A DNA stretch of 64,000 nt from Treponema sp. OMZ 790 (lineage in GTDB: Bacteria; Spirochaetota; Spirochaetia; Treponematales; Treponemataceae). How positions within the stretch are numbered: the first letter of the stretch is position 1; the number at the start of each line of letters is the position of its first letter. The stretch is taken from positions 1,116,001-1,180,000 of the forward strand of contig NZ_CP051201.1 of assembly GCF_024181285.1 (NCBI RefSeq), given 5' to 3'. The translations under genes and the position numbers were made by a program. Below are positions 8,523 to 19,896 of the stretch, piece by piece. Below the pieces are notes generated by a model. It ran no database searches, was not told the origin of the DNA, and saw only the letters and a list, made by a program, of their open reading frames with translations.

Positions 8523-9149
8523 ATGAATACCGGAACTTACGCACAAACACACGAAACGATTCTCAAAAATGGCAAAGAACTTTTTTTGAAGGAAGGCTTT
8601 GAGCGTGCCAATTTGCGTGAAATATGCAGGCTTTCAGGCGTTACTACAGGCGGATTTTACCGGCACTTTAAGGATAAGGCCGACCTTTTTTCCGCATTGG
8701 TGGAGCCTGCGGTTCAAGGCTTGTTGGAGCAATATTCCGCCTCCGAAAAATTGTGCTTCGGAGTGCTTGAAGAAGGCGGCATAGAGGAAATATGGAAGGT
8801 TTCGGCTGAAGCCCTTGAAGATTTTGTCTCTTATATTTTCGACAATCTTGAAGCTTTTAAACTGGTTCTATGCTGTGCATCCGGTACCAAATATGCCGAT
8901 TTTACCGATTGGATGGTAAAGCGGGAAATGAAGGATATGTATAAAACCTACGAACTGCTTGAAAAAAAAGGTATTGCCGTCCGCCGGCTTCCCGAAAAAG
9001 AATTGCACATGCTTACCCATGCGTATTTTTCCTGTATCTTTGAAACCGTGCTGCATAACTTTTCAAAAAAAGCCGCCTTACAGTCAACGAAAACTTTGGC
9101 AGAATTTTTTTCCGCCGGCTGGAGGAAGGTTTTCGGGGTGGAGGATTAA
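8523..9149 (+). CDS. TetR/AcrR family transcriptional regulator
   Basis: The 208-residue protein has the typical TetR size. The N-terminal helix-turn-helix is clear: residues ~10-55 contain ETILKNGKELFLKEGFERAN, then REICRLSGVTTGGFYRHFKD, the recognition-helix region. The C-terminal ligand-binding domain is diverse as expected. It is transcribed divergently from the methyltransferase and lies upstream of Nudix, nitroreductase, radical SAM and MATE genes on the same strand. Shared dyads in the promoters of those genes suggest it is the local repressor of a drug or xenobiotic response. The inducer is unknown. The ribosome site is weak (AAGGCAG, 6 nt before ATG). Confidence 0.85.
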   Translation: MNTGTYAQTHETILKNGKELFLKEGFERANLREICRLSGVTTGGFYRHFKDKADLFSALVEPAVQGLLEQYSASEKLCFGVLEEGGIEEIWKVSAEALEDFVSYIFDNLEAFKLVLCCASGTKYADFTDWMVKREMKDMYKTYELLEKKGIAVRRLPEKELHMLTHAYFSCIFETVLHNFSKKAALQSTKTLAEFFSAGWRKVFGVED

Positions 9150-9216
9150 AAGGACGGAATACCGATTAACAAATTGTTTCCTAAAAACAGAAACATAGAA
9201 GGAAAGAGATAGTACT

Positions 9217-9765
9217 TTGAGACAAAACTTTATGAATAATGAATTTGAAATTGAACTGCAAGATACTGAATGGCAGTTTTCTTATATCGATCATGATAGA
9301 GAAATTGTAAGAGCTATTGTAATTGATAATAATGAAAATTATTATTTTGTAAGAGTGCAAAGAGACGATGATTTTGGTAAAGTAACACTGATTGAAACTG
9401 CAGGCGGCGGTGTTGAACCTAATGAAAATTTAGAAGATGCAATTAGAAGAGAACTTAAAGAAGAATTGGGTGCGGAAGTTGAAATTCTTTCTAAAATAGG
9501 AGTTGTCAGTGATTACTATAATTTAATTCACAGGCATAATCTGAACAATTATTATCTTTGCAGAGTAAAATTTTTCGGCGATAAGAATATGACGCAAACA
9601 GAAATTGATGACTTTCATTTATCTACCTTAAAGTTACGTTATGAAGAAGCTGTAGATGAATATAAGAAATACTCAAACAGCAGGTTAGGAAAACTCATTG
9701 CAAATAGAGAGATTCCGATCCTTATGAGAGCAAAAAAGATGATTGTTGAAAATCCCATATTTTGA
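9217..9765 (+). CDS. Nudix hydrolase, copy 1
   Basis: The 182-residue product has the complete Nudix box G-x5-E-x7-REUxEExGU at residues ~65-87 (GVEPNENLEDAIRRELKEEL), so it should hydrolyse a nucleoside diphosphate linked to another moiety. It is nearly identical to the gene at 11864-12421, differing at only about ten residues. The duplicated DNA starts at TGAGACAAAAC (9218) and ends near 9760. The reading frame can begin at TTG 9217 or ATG 9232; the latter begins with MNNEFEIEL. An AAGGAAAGAG stretch lies upstream of the TTG. Substrate is unknown. Confidence 0.8.
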   Translation: MRQNFMNNEFEIELQDTEWQFSYIDHDREIVRAIVIDNNENYYFVRVQRDDDFGKVTLIETAGGGVEPNENLEDAIRRELKEELGAEVEILSKIGVVSDYYNLIHRHNLNNYYLCRVKFFGDKNMTQTEIDDFHLSTLKLRYEEAVDEYKKYSNSRLGKLIANREIPILMRAKKMIVENPIF

Positions 9766-9805
9766 TAAACAGGATATTTTTACTACAAAACATTTTCCCA
9801 TCCTC

Positions 9806-9848
9806 TTGACCTTTTTTCTTATTTTAGATAACATTGTTAGCATATAAT
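9806..9848 (+). promoter_or_regulatory. Nitroreductase operon promoter with TetR-like operator
   Basis: TTGACC (9806-9811) is followed by TAACAT at 17 bp; a perfect TATAAT also occurs at 9843-9848. The word GATAACATTGTTAGCAT (9827-9843) lies over the core promoter and contains a GATAAC-N3-GTTA dyad shared with the tetR and MATE promoters. Its surroundings (CATCCTCTTGAC...TTTTAGATAACA) match the MATE promoter closely, so the two arose by duplication or are kept by common regulation. Confidence 0.55.
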
Positions 9849-9878
9849 GCTATCATAAATGCTTTTATATAAGGAGGC

Positions 9879-10019
9879 ATGTTGAAGCTTCAGGTGCAAA
9901 TAGAACCTTCCGCTTCAACTAGAGTTTTGTGTAAACACAAAACTCTCATCATTATATGCACTTTCTCATTGACATTGCGAAAGTGCGTAAAAAATTATAT
10001 TCGCAATTCTTATTCGTAA
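9879..10019 (+). CDS. Possible 46-residue leader ORF in the nitroreductase leader
   Basis: An ATG preceded by AAGGAGG (9871-9877) opens a 46-codon frame that ends at 10019. It lies entirely inside the hairpin-rich leader between the promoter and the nitroreductase gene, and several of its codons form stem arms. The predicted peptide has no recognisable domain. The good ribosome site argues for translation, but the sequence may be dictated by the RNA structure. It could be a leader peptide, a gene remnant, or nothing. Confidence 0.25.
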   Translation: MLKLQVQIEPSASTRVLCKHKTLIIICTFSLTLRKCVKNYIRNSYS

Positions 10020-10091
10020 TCCGCTTTAGCGGATATGTACAATAAATTTCTTTGCAGAACAGAGCTGATAAGCTCTGATGAATTGCTCATC
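9881..10091 (+). repeat. Hairpin array in nitroreductase leader (element B)
   Basis: Consecutive inverted repeats are visible: GTTGAAGC/GCTTCAAC (9881 to about 9919), AGAGTTTTGTGT-AA-ACACAAAACTCT (9921-9946), GCACTTTC/GAAAGTGC (9958-9986), ATCCGCT-TT-AGCGGAT (10019-10034), CAGAGCT-GATA-AGCTCTG (10060-10077) and GATGA-ATTGC-TCATC (10077-10091). The last is followed by a T run and then the AGGAGG of the nitroreductase. The stretch 9766-10113 holds no convincing gene other than the small leader ORF. Confidence 0.7.
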
Positions 10092-10113
10092 TAATTTTTT
10101 TAGGAGGTGTTGT

Positions 10114-10635
10114 ATGAACACATTTTTGGAACTCGCCAAAAGCAGACATTCGGTGAGAAGTTATGAAAAGCGCGCTGTTGAGGCGGAAAAGCTTAACAGT
10201 ATTTTGGAAGCGGGGCGTATTGCTCCTACGGCGGCAAATATGCAGCCCTGCCGTTTTCTTGTTTTAAATGACGAGGCGGCGATGAGTAAGCTGCAAAAGG
10301 CATGTACTCCGCACGGGGCACCGCTTGCCATTGTGGTATGCGCCGACAAAAAAGCGGCGTGGGTTCGTCCTTTTGATAAGGCAAGTATGGCGGATATTGA
10401 CACAAGTATCGCTACTGACCACATGATGATGTGCGCTCAAGATATGGGGCTTTCAAGCTGTTGGATTACTTATTTTAAGCCCGATGTAGTGCGTACCGAA
10501 TTCAATATTCCCGATGATTTGGTTCCGGTAAACATTTTGGTTATCGGTTACGGAAAAGAAGCGGCAAAATCGCCTGACCGCTATGACGATGAGCGGAATC
10601 CGATGGACATGATAGTTCAATACTCATCATTTTAG
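10114..10635 (+). CDS. Nitroreductase family NAD(P)H/FMN oxidoreductase
   Basis: The 173-residue protein is a compact nitroreductase. It begins FLELAKSRHSVRSYEKRAV, with the family SRrSvR FMN-phosphate-binding segment (residues ~8-15). APTAANMQPCRF (about 36-47) is the flavin-contact loop and CAQDMGLSSCW (about 107-118) is the conserved GL-S-CW motif. Such enzymes reduce nitro groups or quinones using NAD(P)H and bound FMN. AGGAGG at 10103-10108 fixes the start at 10114 rather than the in-frame codon at 10078. It is followed 9 bp later by the radical SAM gene, so an operon is likely. Its promoter carries the putative TetR operator. Confidence 0.85.
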   Translation: MNTFLELAKSRHSVRSYEKRAVEAEKLNSILEAGRIAPTAANMQPCRFLVLNDEAAMSKLQKACTPHGAPLAIVVCADKKAAWVRPFDKASMADIDTSIATDHMMMCAQDMGLSSCWITYFKPDVVRTEFNIPDDLVPVNILVIGYGKEAAKSPDRYDDERNPMDMIVQYSSF

Positions 10636-10644
10636 AAAAACAAG

Positions 10645-11664
10645 ATGATAGATGTTGAACTCGGTCCTATAAGACCGCCGTCGGAACATCAAAGCCTCTT
10701 GTTGCGTTTGACAAGAGGCTGTTCTTGGAACAGATGTTTTTTTTGCGGATTGTATAAGAGGATGCGCTTTTCGGTGCGTTCTACCGAAGAGGTTATAGGC
10801 GATATAAAAAAATATGCCGCTTATTACGGGGAGCGCGCAAGTTTTTTTAAATCCTGCTTTTTGCAGGACGGAGATGCCTTTAATATTCCGGCAAAGGATT
10901 TGCTTTCGATATTGCATACACTTAAAAAGTATTTTCCGGCACTGCAAGCGGTTACTACTTATGCCCGTTGTGACAGCATTTTGAAAAAGACCGAAAACGA
11001 ATTACAAGCTCTTTGCGAGGCGGGCTTAAATCACTTGTATCGAGGAATTGAAACGGGCTCGGACACGATATTGCAAAAAATCAACAAGGGGATAACCGCA
11101 GAGCAAATTGTAAAATCGGGCTTGGCAGCTAAGAAAGCCGGCATGACATTATCGGAATTTACCTTGCTCGGAATCGGCGGTAAATCTCTTTCCGAAGAAA
11201 ATGCAATCGAAACGGCTAAGGTAATCAATGCCGTTAATCCCGAATTTATCCGCGTACATCACACGGCATTTAAACCGAATACAAAATTGGGGCGGGATGT
11301 CGAAAAAGGATTATTCGATTTGCAATCGGAAGAGGAAATGGTTTGTGAGCAAAAATTTTTTATCGAGCAGCTTACCGATATTACAAGTTATTATGTGAAT
11401 GAGCATATTGTAAACTTACTATTGGAAGTGCGGGGAAAACTGCCTGAAGATAAAAATACAATGCTTGCAATTATCGACTCGTACCTTTCGATGAGTGCGG
11501 AAGATAAACTTAATTTTGCCGTCGGAAGAAGATTGGGATATTACTATTACCTCAAAGATATGCAAAACGAAGCCGAAAACACCGCCGTTACAAAGTACAT
11601 AAAAGAAAACCCTAATACCGACTTTGCCTTATTTTGTAATGAGTGCAGAGCCAAGATGATATAG
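10645..11664 (+). CDS. Radical SAM protein
   Basis: The 339-residue protein has the iron-sulphur-binding cysteines in GCSWNRCFFCG (about residues 25-36), spaced C-x4-C-x2-C, a variant seen in a subset of COG1032-type radical SAM proteins instead of the usual C-x3-C-x2-C. Downstream motifs for SAM binding include LYRGIETGSDTIL (about 131-143, the GxIxGxxE-like strand) and SEFTLLGIGG (about 171-180). The enzyme should cleave SAM to a 5'-deoxyadenosyl radical; the substrate is unknown. It starts 9 bp after the nitroreductase stop with little ribosome-site signal, which implies translational coupling. Confidence 0.85.
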   Translation: MIDVELGPIRPPSEHQSLLLRLTRGCSWNRCFFCGLYKRMRFSVRSTEEVIGDIKKYAAYYGERASFFKSCFLQDGDAFNIPAKDLLSILHTLKKYFPALQAVTTYARCDSILKKTENELQALCEAGLNHLYRGIETGSDTILQKINKGITAEQIVKSGLAAKKAGMTLSEFTLLGIGGKSLSEENAIETAKVINAVNPEFIRVHHTAFKPNTKLGRDVEKGLFDLQSEEEMVCEQKFFIEQLTDITSYYVNEHIVNLLLEVRGKLPEDKNTMLAIIDSYLSMSAEDKLNFAVGRRLGYYYYLKDMQNEAENTAVTKYIKENPNTDFALFCNECRAKMI

Positions 11665-11863
11665 AAAAAGGGATCAATTTTTAATTATGAATGCTTAATG
11701 AGGAATTGGGGCCCTTTAATGAAGGATACAATATCTATAAAATATGTACCGTTGTTGTAGCAAATTTATTAAACAAGATTATCATGTGCGGCATTCATTA
11801 ATTGACGCAAGTAGGAATAAATGGCATAATAAATGAAAAGAACCGGCGAATTTAAATTTTTTA

Positions 11864-12421
11864 ATGAGACAAAACTTTATGAATAATGAATTTGAAATTG
11901 AACTGCAAGATACCGAGTGGGAGCTCACTTATATTGATCATGATAGAGAAATTGTACGGGCTATTATAATTGATAATAATGAAAATTATTATTTTGTAAG
12001 AGTACAAAGAGATGATACTTTCGGAAAAATGACACTGATTGAGACGGCAGGCGGCGGTGTTGAACCTAATGAAAATTTAGAAGATGCAATTAGAAGAGAG
12101 CTTAAAGAAGAATTGGGTGCGGAAGTTGATATTCTTTCTAAAATAGGCGTTGTCAGTGATTACTATAATTTAATTCACAGGCATAATCTGAACAATTATT
12201 ATCTTTGCAGAGTAAAATCTTTTGGTGATAAGAATATGACGCAAACAGAAATTGATGACTTTCATTTATCTACCTTAAAATTACGTTATGAAGAAGCTGT
12301 AGACGAATATAAGAAATACTCAAACAGCCAATTGGGAAAACTCATTGCAAATAGAGAGATTCCGATACTTATGCGGGCAAAAAAGATGATTATTGAAAAT
12401 CCGATTTTTTTGGAAATATAA
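11864..12421 (+). CDS. Nudix hydrolase, copy 2
   Basis: The 185-residue product is almost the same as the protein at 9217-9765, with substitutions at about ten positions (for example QFS to ELT near residue 20 and KFF to KSF near residue 118), and ends in three different residues (LEI). The Nudix box is intact at residues ~65-87. Here the first codon is ATG where copy 1 has TTG. The homology stops at about 12410, and directly beyond it, on the opposite strand, lies the start of a VapC-type toxin gene cut off by this junction. The 200 bp before the gene holds nothing recognisable. Confidence 0.8.
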   Translation: MRQNFMNNEFEIELQDTEWELTYIDHDREIVRAIIIDNNENYYFVRVQRDDTFGKMTLIETAGGGVEPNENLEDAIRRELKEELGAEVDILSKIGVVSDYYNLIHRHNLNNYYLCRVKSFGDKNMTQTEIDDFHLSTLKLRYEEAVDEYKKYSNSQLGKLIANREIPILMRAKKMIIENPIFLEI

Positions 12422-12495
12422 GGTTTCATACAGGGATTACCGGCAAGCAGATAAATTAAAGCATTTGTATCAGCTAAAAAATCAGTTCCACTCAT
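12422..12495 (-). pseudogene. Truncated VapC-like PIN-domain toxin
   Basis: On the minus strand, MSGTDFLADTNALIYLLAGN (start 12495) is the classic first strand of a PIN-domain ribonuclease, with the first catalytic aspartate in LADTN. It overlaps the end of the antitoxin gene by 14 bp as in intact vapBC operons. Homology ends after roughly 25 residues at the edge of the Nudix copy 2 segment, and the remaining PIN acidic residues are missing. The toxin is therefore presumably inactive. Confidence 0.6.
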
Positions 12496-12691
12496 TCCGC
12501 ATTTCCTTCTGTATTTTCAATGCATCTTGATGAAATTTTAGTGAACCGAAATATTTTGATAAATCCGTATGTTTTTCTTTTTCGGCTGATTGATTATATC
12601 TATAAAGAATATATTGGACATAATTCTGTATATCGGCAAGGCATTCTTGCGGAACCGTTTTTATTTGTTCAACTAATGTTTCATAAACCAT
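12482..12691 (-). CDS. VapB-like (DUF2281-type) antitoxin
   Basis: The ~69-residue protein starts at 12691 (MVYETLVEQIKTVPQECLAD), supported by GGGAGAAA upstream, rather than at the earlier in-frame codon at 12733. The N-terminal helix and ADIQNYVQYILYRY segment resemble DUF2281-type antitoxins that pair with PIN toxins; the C-terminal tail (LKFHQDALKIQKEMRNEW) would be the toxin-wrapping part. The following vapC-like gene is cut short, so the antitoxin appears orphaned. Confidence 0.55.
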   Translation of the reverse strand: MVYETLVEQIKTVPQECLADIQNYVQYILYRYNQSAEKEKHTDLSKYFGSLKFHQDALKIQKEMRNEWN

Positions 12692-12794
12692 ATATTTCTC
12701 CCTAATTAAGTATATCAAAGGAAGTTTCTTCAAACTACATTACTATATCATTTATTGCCGAATATTTCTACTACTACAAAGTCCCTCCATCCTC

Positions 12795-12847
12795 TTGACT
12801 TTTTTCCTGTTTTAGATAACAATGCCAGCATACAATGTTATCTAAAA
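12795..12847 (+). promoter_or_regulatory. MATE gene promoter with 12-bp inverted repeat operator
   Basis: TTGACT (12795-12800) precedes a perfect inverted repeat TTTTAGATAACA (12810-12821) / TGTTATCTAAAA (12836-12847) separated by 14 bp. GATAACAATGCCAGCAT inside it aligns with the elements upstream of tetR and the nitroreductase. TAACAA at 16 bp spacing, or TACAAT at 12831-12836, could serve as -10. The position suggests repression by the local TetR protein. Confidence 0.6.
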
Positions 12848-12865
12848 ATCATGAGAGGGAATAAA

Positions 12866-14197
12866 ATGAACCAAGATATGAAAACACAATTATTGACAAA
12901 AAGCCCGATGGAACTGCTTTTTAAGTTGGCGGTTCCCGGAATAGTCGGTATGGTCGTTATCGGGCTGTACCCGTTTATGGACGGAGTATTTGCCGGAAGG
13001 ATTATCGGAGACTATGCGATGTCTGCAATCAGTATCTCGATGTCGCTGACGCTGATAAACGGAGCGGTGTCGGCCTTGCTCGGAGTCGGAAGTGCGTCCA
13101 TTTTGTCGCGGGCAATCGGCAAAGGTGATACGGAAACGGTAGATAAAATTTTCGGCAATGTTTGTTATTGGGTGCTGCTTTTTTCGGCAGTGATTACGGC
13201 GACGGGTGTGCTTGCCGCTCCCTATTTTTTGGAGATGGTGGGAGCAAAGGGAGCGATTAAAGATTTCGGCGTGCGGTATTTGCGGATTGTATTTTTAGGT
13301 TCGGTGTTCGTAAACTTTGCTCAAACCGGAAATATGACCATGCGCGGCGAGGGTGCTTTAAAGCAATCCATGCTCATTATGGGAGCGGGAGCTCTTTTGA
13401 ATATCGTGCTGGATCCGATTTTTATGCTCCTGATGGGGGACTACGCAATTGAGGGAGCTGCGGCTGCTACGGTGATCTCGCAAATTGTGCAGGCGGTTTT
13501 AACCCTGCGGTATTTTGCGAAAAAAAGCCCCTTTGTCAAAATACACAAAATTAAAAAGTATAAAGAAATTTACCGTGAAATGTTTGGCATCGGAAGCTCG
13601 GCTATGCTCATGCAGCTTTTGTTTGCAGTGCAGCAAACGGTTTTGTTCAAGCAGGCGTTTACCTTCGGCGGCGATAACTGGGGGATTTTAATGTCCGCTA
13701 CAATGCGGCTATACATGTTTTCGTTTATTCCGCTGTGGGGTATGAGTCAGGGCTTACAGCCGGTTATCGGGGCGAACTACGGAGCCAAGCAGTACGAAAG
13801 AGTGCGGGAAACGATGAAGCTTTTTATGTACGGGGCAACGCTTCTTGCGGCTCTCTCGTGGGTTCCGGCAATGCTTTTTTCCGAAACTCTCTTGTCGATC
13901 TTCAATGTGCGCCCCGAGATTATTGCAGCAGGCAGTATCAATTTCAAACTGTTTTATTCCACATTTATTTTATACGGCATTATGATTATGACGCTTACCT
14001 TTTTTCAATCAATAGGAGATGCCAAAAAAGCGGGAGCTATCGTCCTCTTGCGCCAGCTCATTCTCTTTGTGCCTGCAATGCTGATTTTGCCTGAGCTGTT
14101 TGGAAGCCTTGCCGTCTGGTGGGCGGAACCTGCCGTTGATTTTACAATGATACTCATCGGCTTTATCATGCAGCAAAGGGTGTTATGGAGGTTATGA
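12866..14197 (+). CDS. MATE family multidrug exporter
   Basis: The 443-residue membrane protein has about twelve hydrophobic segments and an internal two-half repeat, as in MATE transporters, which export cationic drugs by Na+ or H+ antiport. The N-terminal LLFKLAVPGIVGMVVIGLYPFMDGVFAG and the GVGSASILSRAIG loop (about residue 70) are family-like, and the second half contains MSQGLQPVIGANYGAKQYER, the conserved Q-P-GxNYGA motif. GAGAGGGA at 12852-12860 fixes the start at 12866, not at the upstream in-frame codon. Its base composition is richer in GC than the following defence islet. A strong dyad operator lies just upstream. Confidence 0.9.
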   Translation: MNQDMKTQLLTKSPMELLFKLAVPGIVGMVVIGLYPFMDGVFAGRIIGDYAMSAISISMSLTLINGAVSALLGVGSASILSRAIGKGDTETVDKIFGNVCYWVLLFSAVITATGVLAAPYFLEMVGAKGAIKDFGVRYLRIVFLGSVFVNFAQTGNMTMRGEGALKQSMLIMGAGALLNIVLDPIFMLLMGDYAIEGAAAATVISQIVQAVLTLRYFAKKSPFVKIHKIKKYKEIYREMFGIGSSAMLMQLLFAVQQTVLFKQAFTFGGDNWGILMSATMRLYMFSFIPLWGMSQGLQPVIGANYGAKQYERVRETMKLFMYGATLLAALSWVPAMLFSETLLSIFNVRPEIIAAGSINFKLFYSTFILYGIMIMTLTFFQSIGDAKKAGAIVLLRQLILFVPAMLILPELFGSLAVWWAEPAVDFTMILIGFIMQQRVLWRL

Positions 14198-14241
14198 TAT
14201 AGTGTCATTTATTGAGTATTTCATAATAAGAAGGTACCTAG

Positions 14242-14270
14242 TTGGAAAATGTGAACACTTGTGGTATAAT
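14242..14270 (+). promoter_or_regulatory. Extended -10 promoter for the RloC-like gene
   Basis: TTGGAA (14242-14247), 17 bp, then TATAAT (14265-14270) with a TGG just upstream (TG-n-TATAAT). The predicted start is near 14277. This places the first in-frame TTG at 14242 within the promoter and supports translation from 14329. Confidence 0.6.
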
Positions 14271-14328
14271 ACATATTATTAAGTATAATTTAAATGAAAT
14301 TGCAGTATCTGACAAAAAGGAGAATAGA

Positions 14329-16476
14329 ATGACTATTTCAAAATTAAAACGAGAAAATATTTTTTGCAATGATTTCAAAGATTTAAAAGTAAATAACGAA
14401 ATTCAATTTAGTAAAAATGGTGTTGCAGTAATTTATGGACCAAACGGAACAGGAAAGACTAGTCTTGCAATGGTTTTGGCTCAAGAAAAAAATACTGAAT
14501 ATACAGTTCAATTTAACGGTAAAATGTATACGGAACAAGATAATTCATTTGTTCATATAATCCATGATCAAAATGGAAGAAACATAATCGAAGGATCAAC
14601 CGAAGATTTTATTCTTGGAGATAATATAAAAAGAGAGTATGAGTTAAAAAAAGATCTAGATAGCGGTTTTGACTCATTGTATTCTAATTTAATTAATATT
14701 CTCAAAGAAAGATATGGAATTTCAATAAAATCATCAATTTTTTTAAATTTTATATCTGATAATTTATTAAAAAATTATATATCCGACTTAGCAAATAGCA
14801 AACAAAAAGGAAAAAATATTTCAAGAGATGAATTTTTAAATCATTTTTCAAGTAAAAACTTAAAAGAAATTAATAAATCTTTTGATGAAGAAAAATTTTC
14901 TTTTTTTGTTGAAGATCTAAGAAGTAAGAATTCTTGTTTAAAAGCACTTGAAAAAGTAGTAATCGATTCTTTCTGCAAAGAGGATGAATATGAAAAAATT
15001 GAACAAACCGATGATGCTGTAAGAATTCTTGAAAAATATAAAGAAATTCATAATTGTATTGTTTGTGATACACAGATTGACTATAATATCTTATTAACCA
15101 GAAAAAAAGAACAAAATAAGCATATCCTTGCATCTTTATCCCAAAATTCACGCAATATAATTGAAAATATTATTAATATAATTCCTATAACAGATAAATT
15201 TAATATCAAACAAATCCTTGTAGATGTTTTCAAAACCGGCAATCTTGATGAATTACATGCACTAATTTCAGAGATAAATTTATATAAAAACTATTATAAC
15301 ACTCTCCTTGAAAATACTTTTATTGAAAATATAAAAAATTCAAAATTGTTAGACATTCATACGGAATACTCTCAAATAATTTCGGAAAAACTTGAATTTG
15401 AGGATGAAGATGTTCTTTTTATTGAAAAATTCCTCAATAGTTGCCTTGAAAGAAAAATATCTTTATCACGTGATGAAAATAAAAATATTCGTTTATTGCT
15501 TGGCAACGAAGAATTTCTAAACCAATCACGTACTGATTTAATGTTAAGTAATGGGGAACAAAATTTTTTATCACTTTCATTTGAACTTCTGAAAGCAAAA
15601 AAAACAGATAAAGAATTAATAATTTTAGATGACCCTATTTCAAGTTTTGATTCCATTTATAAAAATAAAATTGCTTATGCAATACTTAAATTTCTCAATA
15701 ATAAGAAATCACTGATATTAACTCATAATACTGATTTAATAAAATTATTGGAACACCAAGCAAAAGCCTGTTTTACTTTATATTATATGAACAATACGGT
15801 AGGAGAAAATAATGGCTTTTTACACATAAATGAAAATGAAATAAAAATATTATTATATATTCCTAATTTAATAAATGTTTTCAGGACAGAGATTAAACAA
15901 GAAATTATAGATGAAAAAGCGTTTCTCATATCTATTATTCCTTTTATGAGGGGGTATTGTTTGTTAATAAATGACAATGAAAACAAAGACAAGCTTACAA
16001 AATTAATGCATGGGTACGAAACTGAATGTGAAGAATTATCAAAAATATATAATACCGTATTTTCAACCGAAATAATTGAAAATAAATACACAATATCAGC
16101 TTGTGATATTCTTAATTATGATGTTAACAATTTACAAATAATAAAAAATGATAATTACCCACTTCTTTCTAAAACATTAATTCATTCCTTTACATATCTG
16201 TATTTACGAATGGTTGTAGAAAAAAAACTTGTTGATAAATTTTCTATAAATGTAAAAAAATATGATATGCTTAGCAGTATAATTAATTATTCTTTTTCTG
16301 AAAATACAAAGGTTAATATTGAAAATAGAGTTTTCTTTTTATCAAAAAAAACACTATTAAATGAATTTAACCATTTTGAAATGGATATGAATATTTTTCA
16401 ACCTGCTATAGATATTACAAATTTTGCATTAAAAAAAGAAAAAGAAGATATTATTACAAAACTTGCATCGTTATAA
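14329..16476 (+). CDS. RloC/PrrC-like ATPase, candidate anticodon nuclease
   Basis: The 715-residue protein starts after AAGGAGA. Walker A is GPNGTGKT (residues 37-44). A CxxC zinc-hook-like pair (CIVC, 243-246) lies in a helical insert, an ABC-type signature LSNGEQNFLSL occurs near residue 408, Walker B is LIILDDP (431-437) and an H-loop-like LTHN follows near residue 466. This arrangement, with the hook between the ATPase halves and DDPISSFD after Walker B, is that of AAA_13/RloC/PrrC proteins. The C-terminus has R627-x3-E631 (LRMVVEKKL) and H682 in NEFNHFE, which could be the R-E-H active-site triad of PrrC-type tRNA anticodon nucleases; this assignment is inference. GC content is far below the MATE gene. 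A reverse transcriptase gene follows 185 bp downstream, suggesting a defence islet. Confidence 0.65.
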   Translation: MTISKLKRENIFCNDFKDLKVNNEIQFSKNGVAVIYGPNGTGKTSLAMVLAQEKNTEYTVQFNGKMYTEQDNSFVHIIHDQNGRNIIEGSTEDFILGDNIKREYELKKDLDSGFDSLYSNLINILKERYGISIKSSIFLNFISDNLLKNYISDLANSKQKGKNISRDEFLNHFSSKNLKEINKSFDEEKFSFFVEDLRSKNSCLKALEKVVIDSFCKEDEYEKIEQTDDAVRILEKYKEIHNCIVCDTQIDYNILLTRKKEQNKHILASLSQNSRNIIENIINIIPITDKFNIKQILVDVFKTGNLDELHALISEINLYKNYYNTLLENTFIENIKNSKLLDIHTEYSQIISEKLEFEDEDVLFIEKFLNSCLERKISLSRDENKNIRLLLGNEEFLNQSRTDLMLSNGEQNFLSLSFELLKAKKTDKELIILDDPISSFDSIYKNKIAYAILKFLNNKKSLILTHNTDLIKLLEHQAKACFTLYYMNNTVGENNGFLHINENEIKILLYIPNLINVFRTEIKQEIIDEKAFLISIIPFMRGYCLLINDNENKDKLTKLMHGYETECEELSKIYNTVFSTEIIENKYTISACDILNYDVNNLQIIKNDNYPLLSKTLIHSFTYLYLRMVVEKKLVDKFSINVKKYDMLSSIINYSFSENTKVNIENRVFFLSKKTLLNEFNHFEMDMNIFQPAIDITNFALKKEKEDIITKLASL

Positions 16477-16618
16477 GCAAAGATAGTTTAATTTTCTTTG
16501 AGATTTGATTATAAAAACTGATAGAGCTGACTATTGTAAATAACTACTTTTTGATGTAAGTTTTGTGATTATTTTTAAGTAAATGTTAATAGATATAAAT
16601 GCAGTTTAAAATTCTGCG

Positions 16619-16627
16619 TGGTATAGT
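16619..16627 (+). promoter_or_regulatory. Possible extended -10 element before the reverse transcriptase
   Basis: TGG-TATAGT (16619-16627) resembles the TGG-TATAAT of the RloC-like promoter. The -35 region is poor. It would start transcription about 30 nt before the reverse transcriptase start codon. Confidence 0.35.
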
Positions 16628-16661
16628 ATTAAATAATGATATATGTGGTAGGAGCTATAAT

Positions 16662-18235
16662 ATGGAAATACATGAGGCTATAAACCTAGCAATTGATAAC
16701 ATTATTATTGAGGGGCTTAATGATATTTATCCAAATGTTTTTGAAGTGTCTTTGCTCAAGGATATTAATTTTAGAGAAAAGATAATTGAAGCTACTATTC
16801 ATAAAATAAAAAAAAATACAATAACAGAGATGGATTTTCAACCTCTTCAATATTCATATTTTCCTAAAAAAGAAGCTTTTGATTTTCGAAAAGCTGCTTC
16901 CATACAACCGTGGGATTTAATAAAATATATGTCTCTTGTGCTTTTATGTGCAGAGGAAATTGAAAGTAAAAGACCTGCAAAAGATAAGAATATTGTTTTT
17001 TCTTATCGGTTTTATCCCAAAGATGGACGATTGTTTGATACAAATTATGATTATAAAGCATTTCAAAAAAATCTTTCTGATAAGATAAAAGAAAAAAGAT
17101 ATAAGATTTATATAAAGGCTGATATTGCAAATTATTATGATAGACTTAATCTACATCGTCTTGAAAATATTCTTTTATCTTATTGTAGCAATAAGACAAT
17201 TGTTAAGTTGATAAATCAGTTGTTATTATTTTGGTCTAACAGAGATTCTTATGGCTTGCCCGTTGGTTCAAATCCAAGCAGAATTCTTGCAGAGGCGGAA
17301 TTAATTGAAGTCGACAATTATCTTTTATCAAAGAAAATAGATTTTATAAGATTTGTAGATGATTACAGAATATTTGCAAATGATGCAAAAGAAGCTCATT
17401 ACTATTTAAATTTATTTATTGCACGTTTATCATTGGAGGGATTATCTGTAAATACAGGGAAAACCTCAATTGAAAAAACAAAAGAATATCAAGGAGAAAC
17501 TAAGACGGTATCTACCATTGAAGTAATTGATACCTCTCATGTAAAAAAAATAAGGGCGAAAATCCAACTCGATTAATTGTAGGTTATTCCGGCCTAATCC
17601 CTACGAAATATCGGCAACCAACTCAATCTGAAATAAGTATGTACCAAACAATGGAAGTTACAGAAATTAAAAGTAAAATAGCAGGGGAAGAAATTATAAA
17701 ACCAGAAATTATTAGAGATTTCGTAAAATATATAGCTATTAACAATGCTTGGAAATTATTAGACACATTATTGGATATAATGGATAAATTTCCTCAGTTT
17801 ATCCCGTATATTTGTGATATGATAATAAAAAAACAGAATACATTATCAGAAAATGCAAAACATAAAATTAAAGATAAATTTTTGTCTATAATTCAAAGTT
17901 CAAAATCTTATCCGGAATATATTTATTTATCTGCTGTAACAATATTGACAGAAAAACAATTTCTTTCTAAAAATGAAGTATTAAATTTTTATAGAGACTT
18001 AAGACGTTCAACTGGTGCATTCATTGGTAGATATACAATAGATAGACTTGAAAAATTCTTAACACGAGGCGAAATATTGGAAATAAGGAATGAATTCCAT
18101 CAAGTTGGATTGTGGGAAAAACGTTCTATTATTAAAATATCAAAGGAAAAATTGGATGAAGAAGAAAGCAGGCCATGGTTGAAAAATATCAAAAGTTCAA
18201 TAAAAATCGATCCGTTTTCAGAGTTTTTGCTTTGA
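16662..18235 (+). pseudogene. Defence-type reverse transcriptase, frame broken at an A8 run
   Basis: The start at 16662 has GTAGGAG upstream. Visible RT motifs are ADIANYYDRL (catalytic Asp near residue 154), GLPVGSNPSRILAEAEL (motif B), FIRFVDDYRIFA (catalytic Asp pair at 233-234) and LSLEGLSVNTGKT (motif D). There is no maturase or HNH region, so it is not a group II intron; the VDDYRIF style matches Abi/DRT-like 'unknown group' RTs. The first frame stops at 17576, but another frame continues straight through RLIVGYSGLIPTKYRQPT and a helical ~200-residue C-terminal domain to 18235. One extra A at the A8 tract 17543-17550 would join them into about 524 residues. It could be inactivated, phase-variable, made by slippage, or a sequencing error. 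Confidence 0.7.
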
Positions 18236-18391
18236 TTTATTACTTTTAACAAAATTTTCCAATCAAATATTATAATTTATGCAATATATTTTAAATGTCA
18301 ATAATATTTACACGCTCTCATGTGTTGAAAAAGGATAAATTCATCAAATGGATTATAAAAGAAAATCTAAAAAGAATAGACTGATAACATT

Positions 18392-18431
18392 AGATAGAGC
18401 ATTAATATAAAATATTAAAATCTGTCTATCT
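18392..18431 (+). other. Stem-loop downstream of the reverse transcriptase
   Basis: A nested inverted repeat, AGATAGA (18392-18398) with TCTATCT (18425-18431) around TTAATAT (18402-18408) / ATATTAA (18412-18418), lies in the 267-bp gap after the reverse transcriptase. It could be a terminator or part of a structured RNA; nothing else is recognised in 18236-18502. Confidence 0.3.
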
Positions 18432-18502
18432 TGATTTTATTAACTTAATGTACAATAATTTACTAAACAAATACAATTTTAATAAGAACAAGGATATCTC
18501 CC

Positions 18503-18676
18503 ATGCCCACAACCAACCTCACTCGTTTAAAAGAAATATCCAGAAGACCCAAAGAATCACTTGAAGCAATCGGCACAGACGACATTGCATTCATACAAGA
18601 CTTTCTTACCTGTAAAACAATGCGTATCTACAGTGCCGGAGCCATCAGAATAATGGAAAACAATTTGACCTTCTAA
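18503..18676 (+). pseudogene. Short N-terminal fragment resembling a small alarmone synthetase
   Basis: A 57-codon frame (MPTTNLTRLKEISRRPKESL...) with AAGGA about 9 nt upstream. Its second half, AFIQDFLTCKTMRIYSAGAI, is reminiscent of the N-terminal helices of RelA/SpoT-type small alarmone synthetases, after which the synthetase domain would follow; instead it runs into a repetitive tract (from about 18655). I suggest a truncated remnant, at low confidence, since no catalytic motif remains. Confidence 0.3.
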
Positions 18677-18768
18677 CTTTGATATTTTACATTTGAAGTT
18701 TGCCATTCGAACTTCAAAATTTAACATTTGACCTTCGACCTTCTACATTTGTACTTCCCCATCTTCTC
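18655..18768. repeat. TTCGAC/ACTTC-rich degenerate repeat tract
   Basis: The segment is built from variants of short words such as TTGACCTTC, CATTTG, TTCGACC and GTACTTCC. It includes an inverted repeat TTTGAAGTT / AACTTCAAA. The same word set occurs in a second tract at 28511-28625, so it looks like a dispersed low-complexity repeat rather than coding sequence. Confidence 0.45.
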
Positions 18769-18804
18769 TAAACCCTTTTTTAATGCTATAATCTTATCTA
18801 TAAA

Positions 18805-19896
18805 ATGAAACTGGATTTATATATAGATAAAGACGGACAAAAACTAAGATGCGGATATACTACGGGGAGCTGTGCGGCGGCGGCGGCTAAGGCGGCGGCT
18901 TTGATTTTGGGCGGTGAAACTATGACCTCGGTTAAAATCGATACGCCTGCAGGGGTCGTACTTGACCTTCCTGTAGAGCATTGCCGCTCGTATAAAGACA
19001 AGAACGGGACAGCTATTGGAGAAGCTGCCGTTCAAAAAGATGCGGGGGACGACCCTGACAGCACCGACGGCATCTACATCCATGCTCGGGTCTCTTATAG
19101 AAACGATGGGAAGGTTCTCATTGACGGTGGAGAGGGTATAGGAAGAATTACCAAAAAAGGTCTTTTCGGAGAAGTAGGGGAGGCTGCCATTAATCCCGTA
19201 CCCCGTCAAATGATAGAAAAAGAAATTTTAAATGTTTCAAAAAGGGGCTTCAATGTAGAAATTTTCAGTCCTCAAGGAGCCGAAATCGGCAAAAAAACCT
19301 TTAATAAAAATATCGGTGTTGAAGGCGGCATCTCTATTATCGGCACAAAGGGCATAGTCTATCCTATGAGCGAGGATGCTATCAAAAAAACCATCTATCT
19401 TGAAATAGACGCAATACTACAAAATTCCGAAAAAAAAGAAATTCTCTTAGTACCGGGAAACTACGGGGAAGGCCTTAAAGAAAAACTAAAAAACATAATA
19501 GACCTTCCTACCGTAAAAATGTCAAACTATATAGGAGATAGTTTAAGCTATGCCTATTCCAAAGGCTTTAAAACCATGACTTTGCTCGGCCATATCGGTA
19601 AATTTGCCAAACTTTCCATAGGTATTTTTAACACTCATAACCGCAGTGCAGATACCCGCATGGAGGCCTTTGTATACTACCTTGCCATGCAGGGGGCAGA
19701 CAAAAAAACAATCGAAACCGTCAATTCCTTTTTAACGGCTGAAGAAGCCTTCAATTTTCTTGTTGAAAACAAGATGGAAAACCTCATCAAAGCCATGGAA
19801 AGAGGGGCCGAAGAAAGAATCAAAAAATATCTCAAGGATGAAAGCCTTTCAATAAGGGTTTTAATCTACTCGATGAAATATGGTCTCCTAGAATAA
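18805..19896 (+). CDS. cbiD: Cobalt-precorrin-5B C1-methyltransferase
   Basis: CbiD methylates C1 of cobalt-precorrin-5B in the anaerobic cobalamin pathway. The 363-residue length is right and the N-terminal GYTTGSCAAAAAKAA motif (residues ~18-32) is diagnostic. Later conserved elements include VGEAAINPVPRQMI (about 126-139), VPGNYGEGL (about 216) and LLGHIGKFAKLSIGIFNTHNRSAD (about 257-280). No other corrin-ring gene is in the window, so this may be a stranded gene or part of a pathway encoded elsewhere. It is convergent with the ABC-F gene, with only a 2-bp gap between stop codons. Confidence 0.9.
   Translation: MKLDLYIDKDGQKLRCGYTTGSCAAAAAKAAALILGGETMTSVKIDTPAGVVLDLPVEHCRSYKDKNGTAIGEAAVQKDAGDDPDSTDGIYIHARVSYRNDGKVLIDGGEGIGRITKKGLFGEVGEAAINPVPRQMIEKEILNVSKRGFNVEIFSPQGAEIGKKTFNKNIGVEGGISIIGTKGIVYPMSEDAIKKTIYLEIDAILQNSEKKEILLVPGNYGEGLKEKLKNIIDLPTVKMSNYIGDSLSYAYSKGFKTMTLLGHIGKFAKLSIGIFNTHNRSADTRMEAFVYYLAMQGADKKTIETVNSFLTAEEAFNFLVENKMENLIKAMERGAEERIKKYLKDESLSIRVLIYSMKYGLLE

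What the first reader, a model, noticed from the sequence alone, without database searches (positions are those of the whole stretch)
14242..18235. RloC/PrrC-like ATPase next to a non-intron reverse transcriptase: candidate defence system
A zinc-hook ATPase with a possible anticodon-nuclease C-terminus is followed, with similar extended -10 promoters and much lower GC than the flanking genes, by a reverse transcriptase of Abi/DRT style that has a helical C-terminal domain. Either could be an antiphage gene; the pair, with a 185-bp spacer that could hold a small RNA, is a combination I do not recognise as a named system.
Basis: partly seen in the sequence, partly recalled or inferred. Interest (0 to 1): 0.75.

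Follow-up and report, generated by a model that had tools for sequence, protein, structure and literature searches.

The report
Two phage-defence genes sharing a hotspot
A spirochaete carries, side by side, a probable tRNA-cutting suicide ATPase and a damaged DNA-making reverse transcriptase, which look like two separate anti-virus genes parked in a genome spot that related strains fill with other anti-virus genes.

Summary
At 14329-16476 lies an intact RloC/PrrC-like ABC-ATPase with an invariant CxxC hook and R-x3-E-x50-H triad (78 of 78 aligned sequences, window included). At 16662-18235 lies a UG7/DRT8 reverse transcriptase, split here into two frames; an intact 524-aa copy exists in Treponema sp. 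OMZ 788. The interpretation of one paired system is not supported: 0 of 47 ATPase loci hold such an RT, 0 of 6 DRT8 loci hold the ATPase, one of 35 ATPase genomes has a DRT8 RT (other contig), and none of 392 Spirochaetota has strong matches to both. Both genes fill a 4.3-kb, 25% GC insert between MatE and cbiD. In relatives this junction or the neighbouring one holds Hachiman, an AbiL-like ATPase pair, a candidate defence helicase or a TIR fragment. Best reading: two independent defence genes in a hotspot, a stand-alone RloC-like ribotoxin (predicted to stop translation when phage damage is sensed) and a Class 1, probably untemplated DNA-making DRT8. The ATPase family is widespread and deserves testing in its own right.

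The parts
14199..18500 (.). insert between conserved blocks (MatE ... cbiD side), 25.2% GC, holding exactly the two genes
   Evidence: blastn synteny with six related genomes; GC
14262..14271 (+). extended -10 promoter-like site before the ATPase
14329..16476 (+). RloC/PrrC-like ABC-ATPase with predicted C-terminal ribonuclease domain, 715 aa, intact
14434..14463 (+). Walker A (YGPNGTGKTS)
   Evidence: alignments A2 and A4
15055..15066 (+). CxxC zinc-hook motif (CIVC)
   Evidence: both Cys invariant in 78 of 78 sequences
15544..15567 (+). ABC signature (LSNGEQNF)
15616..15651 (+). Walker B / D-loop (LIILDDPISSFD)
16207..16221 (+). R656 and E660 of the predicted anticodon-nuclease triad
   Evidence: 78 of 78 sequences
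16372..16374 (+). H711 of the predicted triad
   Evidence: 78 of 78 sequences
16477..16661 (+). 185-bp spacer; no Rfam match, folds no better than shuffles; holds an extended -10 site at 16619
16662..17576 (+). DRT8 (UG7) reverse transcriptase, part 1: RT domain with catalytic Asp residues, own stop
   Evidence: PADLOC Drt8 6.8e-94; PF00078
17639..18235 (+). DRT8 reverse transcriptase, part 2: helical repeat domain in another frame (that frame is open from before 17540)
   Evidence: PADLOC Drt8 1.3e-28, profile 303-484 of 493
12755..14197 (+). flanking core gene: MatE transporter
18503..18679 (+). remnant of a HEAT-repeat gene that is whole (208 aa) in a relative; marks the right edge of the insert
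18805..19896 (+). flanking core gene: cbiD

Best explanation
Two independent anti-phage genes share one insert in a defence hotspot of a Treponema denticola-group chromosome. (1) The ATPase is a stand-alone RloC-like ribotoxin. Its Rad50-like ABC head, closed by a CxxC zinc hook, is inferred to sense phage-caused DNA damage or DNA ends and to release the C-terminal R-E-H nuclease, which cuts host tRNA anticodon loops and stops translation, so the infected cell dies before phage are made. (2) The RT is a UG7/DRT8 enzyme of the Class 1 type (RT plus helical repeat domain), inferred to make protein-primed, untemplated DNA in an oligomer, as AbiK and Abi-P2 do, and so to abort infection. In this window its frame is broken, so only the ATPase looks functional here. 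Shown by computation: motifs, families, fold class, broken frame, hotspot, lack of conserved linkage in the samples seen. Inferred: tRNA as substrate, the trigger, the DNA product.
For: ATPase: AAA_13 39.1 bits over cut-off 36. RloC motif set present; C272, C275, R656, E660, H711 invariant in 78 of 78. Permuting letters among the 24 invariant C-terminal columns gives the R-x3-E-x36-52-H pattern in 1.2% of 200,000 trials. Foldseek's top rows include SMC, Rad50 and PARIS AriA chains. A phage-type integrase lies within 6 kb in at least 5 of 35 loci, and an integrase beside it in three viral contigs (named by PHROGs in L103); type III Mod/Res relatives lie close in 3 of 35. RT: Drt8 far ahead of every other listed model, 6.8e-94 against 6.3e-37; the model of P0001 matches DRT6, DRT4, AbiK and Abi-P2 over nearly the whole length. 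Independence. Hotspot.
Confidence: 0.75

Rival explanations
1. One two-gene system: the RT (or its DNA product) keeps the RloC-like nuclease silent until phage attack, as retron msDNA and RT keep PtuAB silent in retron-Eco7.
For: Adjacent, same strand, same insert and low GC, similar extended -10 sites. RT plus ABC-ATPase effector that depletes a tRNA is known from retron-Eco7 (PMC11555353, passages). A distant DRT8 RT follows an OLD/AriA-like ATPase by 95 bp in L114.
Against: 0 of 47 ATPase loci with the RT, 0 of 6 distinct DRT8 loci with the ATPase. Among 35 ATPase genomes one DRT8 RT, on another contig. 0 of 392 Spirochaetota genomes with strong matches to both; two (G095, G424) have weak matches to both. 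No structured RNA in the spacer. The RT is broken while the nuclease is intact, which is unexpected if the RT were its antidote.
Confidence: 0.06
2. The ATPase is a DNA-directed ABC sensor or nuclease (Rad50, PARIS AriA or OLD-like) without anticodon-nuclease activity; the R-E-H pattern is structural.
For: Fold matches are to ABC, SMC, Rad50 and AriA heads only; the HEPN Rx4-6H spacing is not met; the best PADLOC hits are the unnamed candidates PDC-S06 and PDC-S46.
Against: R-x3-E-x50-H lies inside the RloC definition (X36-52) and all three residues never vary in 78 sequences down to about 40% identity.
Confidence: 0.3
3. Degraded genomic debris: two decaying mobile genes with no function.
For: The RT is split; a HEAT gene beside it is truncated; the ATPase copy in G323 has stop codons inside.
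Against: The ATPase here is full length with all invariant residues; both RT pieces are 99.6-99.7% identical to an intact copy, so the break is recent or an assembly error.
Confidence: 0.1

Closest known systems
RloC anticodon nuclease (Geobacillus kaustophilus and others)
   Same: ABC head split by an insert with CxxC, C-terminal R-x3-E-x36-52-H, usually without a linked R-M system, some copies in type I/III R-M loci (PMC2610378, passages)
   Different: here Asn precedes the His in 78 of 78, where in RloC Ser often does, within an almost invariant K-T-L-x-N-E-F-N-H block; no tRNA cleavage shown; no direct alignment to a canonical RloC was possible
PrrC anticodon nuclease
   Same: ATPase plus R-E-H triad
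   Different: PrrC has no zinc-hook insert and is silenced by a linked type I R-M enzyme
PARIS AriA, Rad50 and SMC ATPases
   Same: ABC head fold
   Different: Rad50 and SbcC lack the C-terminal triad region; PARIS uses a separate AriB nuclease (abstract in the listing; that AriA lacks such a domain is recalled)
DRT8 (UG7 reverse transcriptase)
   Same: PADLOC Drt8 profile over both parts; same class for L109, L110, L114, L115, L055 and L153
   Different: window copy is split; mechanism of DRT8 not established in print
AbiK, Abi-P2, DRT4, DRT6
   Same: RT domain plus helical solenoid over nearly the full length
   Different: about 12-20% identity in the structural alignments; DNA synthesis not tested here
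Retron-Eco7 (RT + msDNA + PtuA ATPase + PtuB)
   Same: an RT genetically tied to an ABC-ATPase effector pair that depletes a tRNA
   Different: RT not of retron class, no msr/msd found, no PtuB; the ATPase here carries its own predicted nuclease domain

Membership tests
RloC | ABC ATPase motifs (Walker A, signature, Walker B/D-loop, switch His) as in Rad50/PrrC | tested here: met
   most motif residues invariant or nearly so in A2 and A4, H495 invariant; AAA_13 above cut-off; ABC/Rad50/SMC/AriA head matches
RloC | CxxC zinc hook inside a helical insert that splits the ATPase domain | tested here: met
   C272/C275 in 78 of 78; insert mostly helical in the model; zinc binding and coiled-coil pairing not tested
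RloC | C-terminal R-X3-E-X36-52-H triad | tested here: met
   R656-E660-H711 (X50), 78 of 78; permutation control 1.2%; definition from PMC2610378
RloC | tRNA anticodon cleavage, wobble-nucleotide excision, Zn response | not testable with these tools
   needs protein and tRNA
RloC | sequence homology to canonical RloC proteins | not tested
   no verified RloC sequence was at hand; only the shared AAA_13 model
HEPN superfamily | Rx4-6H motif before the catalytic His | tested here: not met
   positions H-5 to H-7 are L/I, L, T in 78 sequences; Lys at H-8, Arg/Lys at H-9; motif from PMC3710099
DRT8 (UG7) | best match to the UG7/Drt8 RT profile | tested here: met
   6.8e-94 for part 1, next UG21 6.3e-37; 1.3e-28 for part 2; that Drt8 is UG7 is recalled
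DRT8 (UG7) | RT catalytic Asp residues | tested here: met
   D154, D233, D234 invariant in A5, present in part 1 of the window
DRT8 (UG7) | Class 1 architecture: RT plus helical repeat domain | tested here: met
   model of intact homologue P0001, helices 322-523; near full-length matches to DRT6, DRT4, AbiK, Abi-P2
DRT8 (UG7) | intact reading frame in the window | tested here: not met
   two frames; intact copy exists elsewhere
DRT8 (UG7) | any obligatory partner gene assigned to DRT8 in print | not tested
   the original survey is not held; a review table names Cap17 with DRT8
Retron | retron-class RT with adjacent msr/msd RNA | tested here: not met
   the 25 PADLOC hits shown of 51 are DRT/UG or generic RT models; no Rfam match; spacer fold z +0.72
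Group II intron | maturase-type RT with intron RNA | tested here: not met
   group II model 57.3 bits against cut-off 300; no Rfam match
ATPase-RT two-gene system | conserved adjacency or co-occurrence | tested here: not met
   0 of 47 ATPase loci, 0 of 6 distinct DRT8 loci, 1 of 35 genomes (other contig), 0 of 392 Spirochaetota with strong matches to both

The most novel reading that the evidence does not exclude
DRT8 reverse transcriptases recruit different ABC-ATPase toxins as partners: here an RloC-like ribotoxin, in genome G1103 an OLD/AriA-like ATPase 95 bp upstream (L114). The RT or its DNA product would guard the ATPase toxin, which would make a non-retron counterpart of retron-PtuAB.
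Probability: 0.06. Interest if true: 0.75.

Novelty: new member of a known kind. Interest (0 to 1): 0.4.

Why it matters
It corrects a tempting reading: closeness of two defence genes is not a system when the site is a hotspot. It also marks a roughly 717-aa RloC-like family, found from spirochaetes and cyanobacteria to Vibrio and prophages with strictly invariant hook and triad, whose best PADLOC matches are unnamed candidates, and a junction (TetR / MatE / cbiD) in treponemes where further defence genes can be looked for.

Tried and rejected
Group II intron, retron and ncRNA-type DRT readings: rejected. Relatives in plasmids, phage records and E. coli genomes: no ATPase match (one search used the DNA of the L103 homologue); the RT finds 11 plasmid records, all below 60% identity, and no phage record; of the 11 I opened two Caballeronia records, which are one locus (19,523 of 19,524 positions alike) with a DRT8 RT and no ATPase, and left nine unopened. 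No RT in viral contigs. Searches of 391 genomes of one class (query P0074) and 369 of another (query P0079) at E 1e-30 gave 0 and 1; the tool warns that an empty answer shows nothing, so co-occurrence could not be measured from the RT side with numbers. The genera of G217 and G323 were not those of the window; the family search found the right group. PDB fold search did not show a nuclease for the ATPase's C-terminal domain; the ABC head fills the list, so this is no evidence either way. The original UG/DRT survey is not held. A paper search for anticodon nuclease, reverse transcriptase, ATPase and antiphage together listed four papers: retron-Eco7, a P2/P4 hotspot paper and two reviews; I saw passages of the first two and only the listing of the reviews, and none of what I saw describes this pair. 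That is a search of one open library only.
Full report
What is there. The window carries an intact ATPase gene (14329-16476, 715 aa; the listed ORF from TTG 14242 is longer) and, 185 bp on, a reverse transcriptase whose two halves lie in different frames (16662-17576 and 17639-18235). The two halves are 99.7% and 99.6% identical to one 524-aa protein, P0001, named by NCBI as from Treponema sp. OMZ 788. cbiD beside the insert is 94-96% identical in five genomes of one spirochaete family. I infer that the host is a Treponema of the T. denticola group; no whole genome is held for the window.

Its settings. In 47 loci from genome contigs (35 covering most of the protein, L001-L035; 12 weak partial matches) no neighbour gene is general among the 35. 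At least five of the 35 have a phage-type integrase within the 6 kb examined on each side (L006, L008, L009, L021, L025). Three (L019, L020, L033) have type III Mod and Res relatives by mutual blastp, and L016 the same helicase neighbour as L020 and L033 (PADLOC names were obtained for L033 and L016 only). Three viral contigs hold it next to an integrase (L103-L105). In L103, the one scanned with PHROGs, integrase, repressor and tail genes are named; P2-like is my label from recall of the gene order. P2-like prophages are known to carry antiviral hotspots (PMC9122126, passages).

Is the pair a system? From the ATPase side: 0 of 47 loci show the RT by tblastn at E 0.01, with the window as positive control. 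Of the 35 long loci, 19 have at least 3 kb on both sides (table). In the 35 whole genomes behind them, 5 have some match to the RT at E 0.001; one (G028) has a DRT8 RT, 26% identical, on a 147-kb contig while its ATPase lies on a 78.6-kb contig; the other four (E 5.7e-6 or weaker) were not classified. In 392 Spirochaetota genomes, 24 have any RT match and 79 any ATPase match at E 0.001; strong ones are 3 (G126, G369, G393) and 4 (G323, G025, G421, G217), with no genome in both sets; two genomes (G095, G424) have weak matches to both. From the RT side: 0 of 6 distinct DRT8 loci hold the ATPase: L109, L110, L114, L115 and L153 with about 9-10 kb flanks, L055 with 2.2 kb in all (L154 is a near copy of L153 and not counted). 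The closest of them, L109 (79% identical RT), has a PIN gene and a SAP-domain gene as neighbours. L114 does have another ABC-ATPase, OLD/AriA-like, 95 bp upstream of its DRT8 RT on the same strand, which is why I keep a small probability for ATPase-RT partnership.

The site. In six related genomes I compared the region around cbiD. Four (G066, G161, G054, G208) keep both MatE and cbiD; G200 keeps cbiD and other blocks but shows no MatE match; in G374 only cbiD and a 195-bp stretch align. In the MatE-cbiD junction G066 has an AAA protein plus DUF3226 protein (PDC-M38A/B, the first also AbiLi-like), G161 a TIR fragment (PDC-S66/ThsB-like) plus transporter-type genes, G054 a NUDIX gene plus transporter-type genes, and G208 only a NUDIX gene. 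G200 has NUDIX and transporter-type genes before cbiD. In the TetR-MatE junction G066 has Hachiman HamA/HamB, G208 the candidate helicase PDC-S28, and G054 a ResIII-type helicase with weak defence matches (the transporter, TetR and NUDIX names in relatives are by synteny or by sight). The window fills the MatE-cbiD junction with ATPase and RT. None of the six genomes has a strong ATPase or RT match (all six were among the 392). This is what a hotspot with exchangeable cargo looks like, and it explains the adjacency without a joint system. Not all cargo is defence: transporter genes are as common there.

Spacer and promoters. The 185-bp spacer folds no better than shuffles (z +0.72) and has no Rfam match. 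Both genes have a TGGTATARTA site at a plausible distance, so each may be transcribed on its own; no terminator-like site was found between them.

Mechanism and verdict. I commit to two independent abortive-infection genes: an RloC-like ribotoxin, intact, and a Class 1 DRT8, broken in this copy or mis-assembled. Tool-supported: family, motifs, fold class, broken frame, hotspot, lack of conserved linkage in the samples seen. Inferred: tRNA substrate, trigger by DNA damage, untemplated DNA product. The ATPase works like RloC on the motif evidence; I file it as an RloC-like protein, not as a proven RloC, because no canonical sequence was aligned and the activity is untested.

Noticed in passing
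window 8523-18805 and L137-L141: TetR / MatE / cbiD neighbourhood of related treponeme genomes acts as a hotspot: Hachiman, AbiL-like ATPase pair, PDC-S28 helicase, ResIII helicase, TIR fragment and transporter clusters occur at the two junctions.
   Followed up: partly
window 9217-9765 and 11864-12421: Two NUDIX-like genes; their DNA is 92% identical over a 300-nt direct repeat 2.6 kb apart.
   Followed up: no
window 9811-9859 and 12799-12847: Near-palindromic 49-nt repeat (82% identical copies) downstream of the first NUDIX gene and near the start of the MatE ORF; could be an operator, a small mobile repeat or a terminator.
   Followed up: no
window 18503-18679: Truncated HEAT-repeat gene; a relative (L137:14393-15019) has it whole (208 aa) before cbiD.
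   Followed up: partly
L016, L019, L020, L033: A subgroup of the ATPase family sits with type III Mod/Res relatives (L019, L020, L033) and with an HKD-Snf2 helicase and a neighbour gene (L016, L020, L033), identified as DUF4391 in L020 and L033; looks like a conserved composite defence locus.
   Followed up: partly
L114:7261-10714: DRT8 RT 95 bp downstream of an OLD/AriA-like ABC-ATPase on the same strand.
   Followed up: partly
L109:9311-10855: DRT8 RT of G126 is 79% identical to P0001 only from residue 64-66 on; its N-terminus differs, so it may be truncated or recombined.
   Followed up: no
L115:9176-14456: DRT8 RT beside a HerA-SIR2 pair in G028.
   Followed up: no
L153:9001-10572 (and near copy L154): DRT8 RT on Caballeronia megaplasmids, records without usable annotation, beside what look by sight like integrase/transposase genes.
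   Followed up: partly
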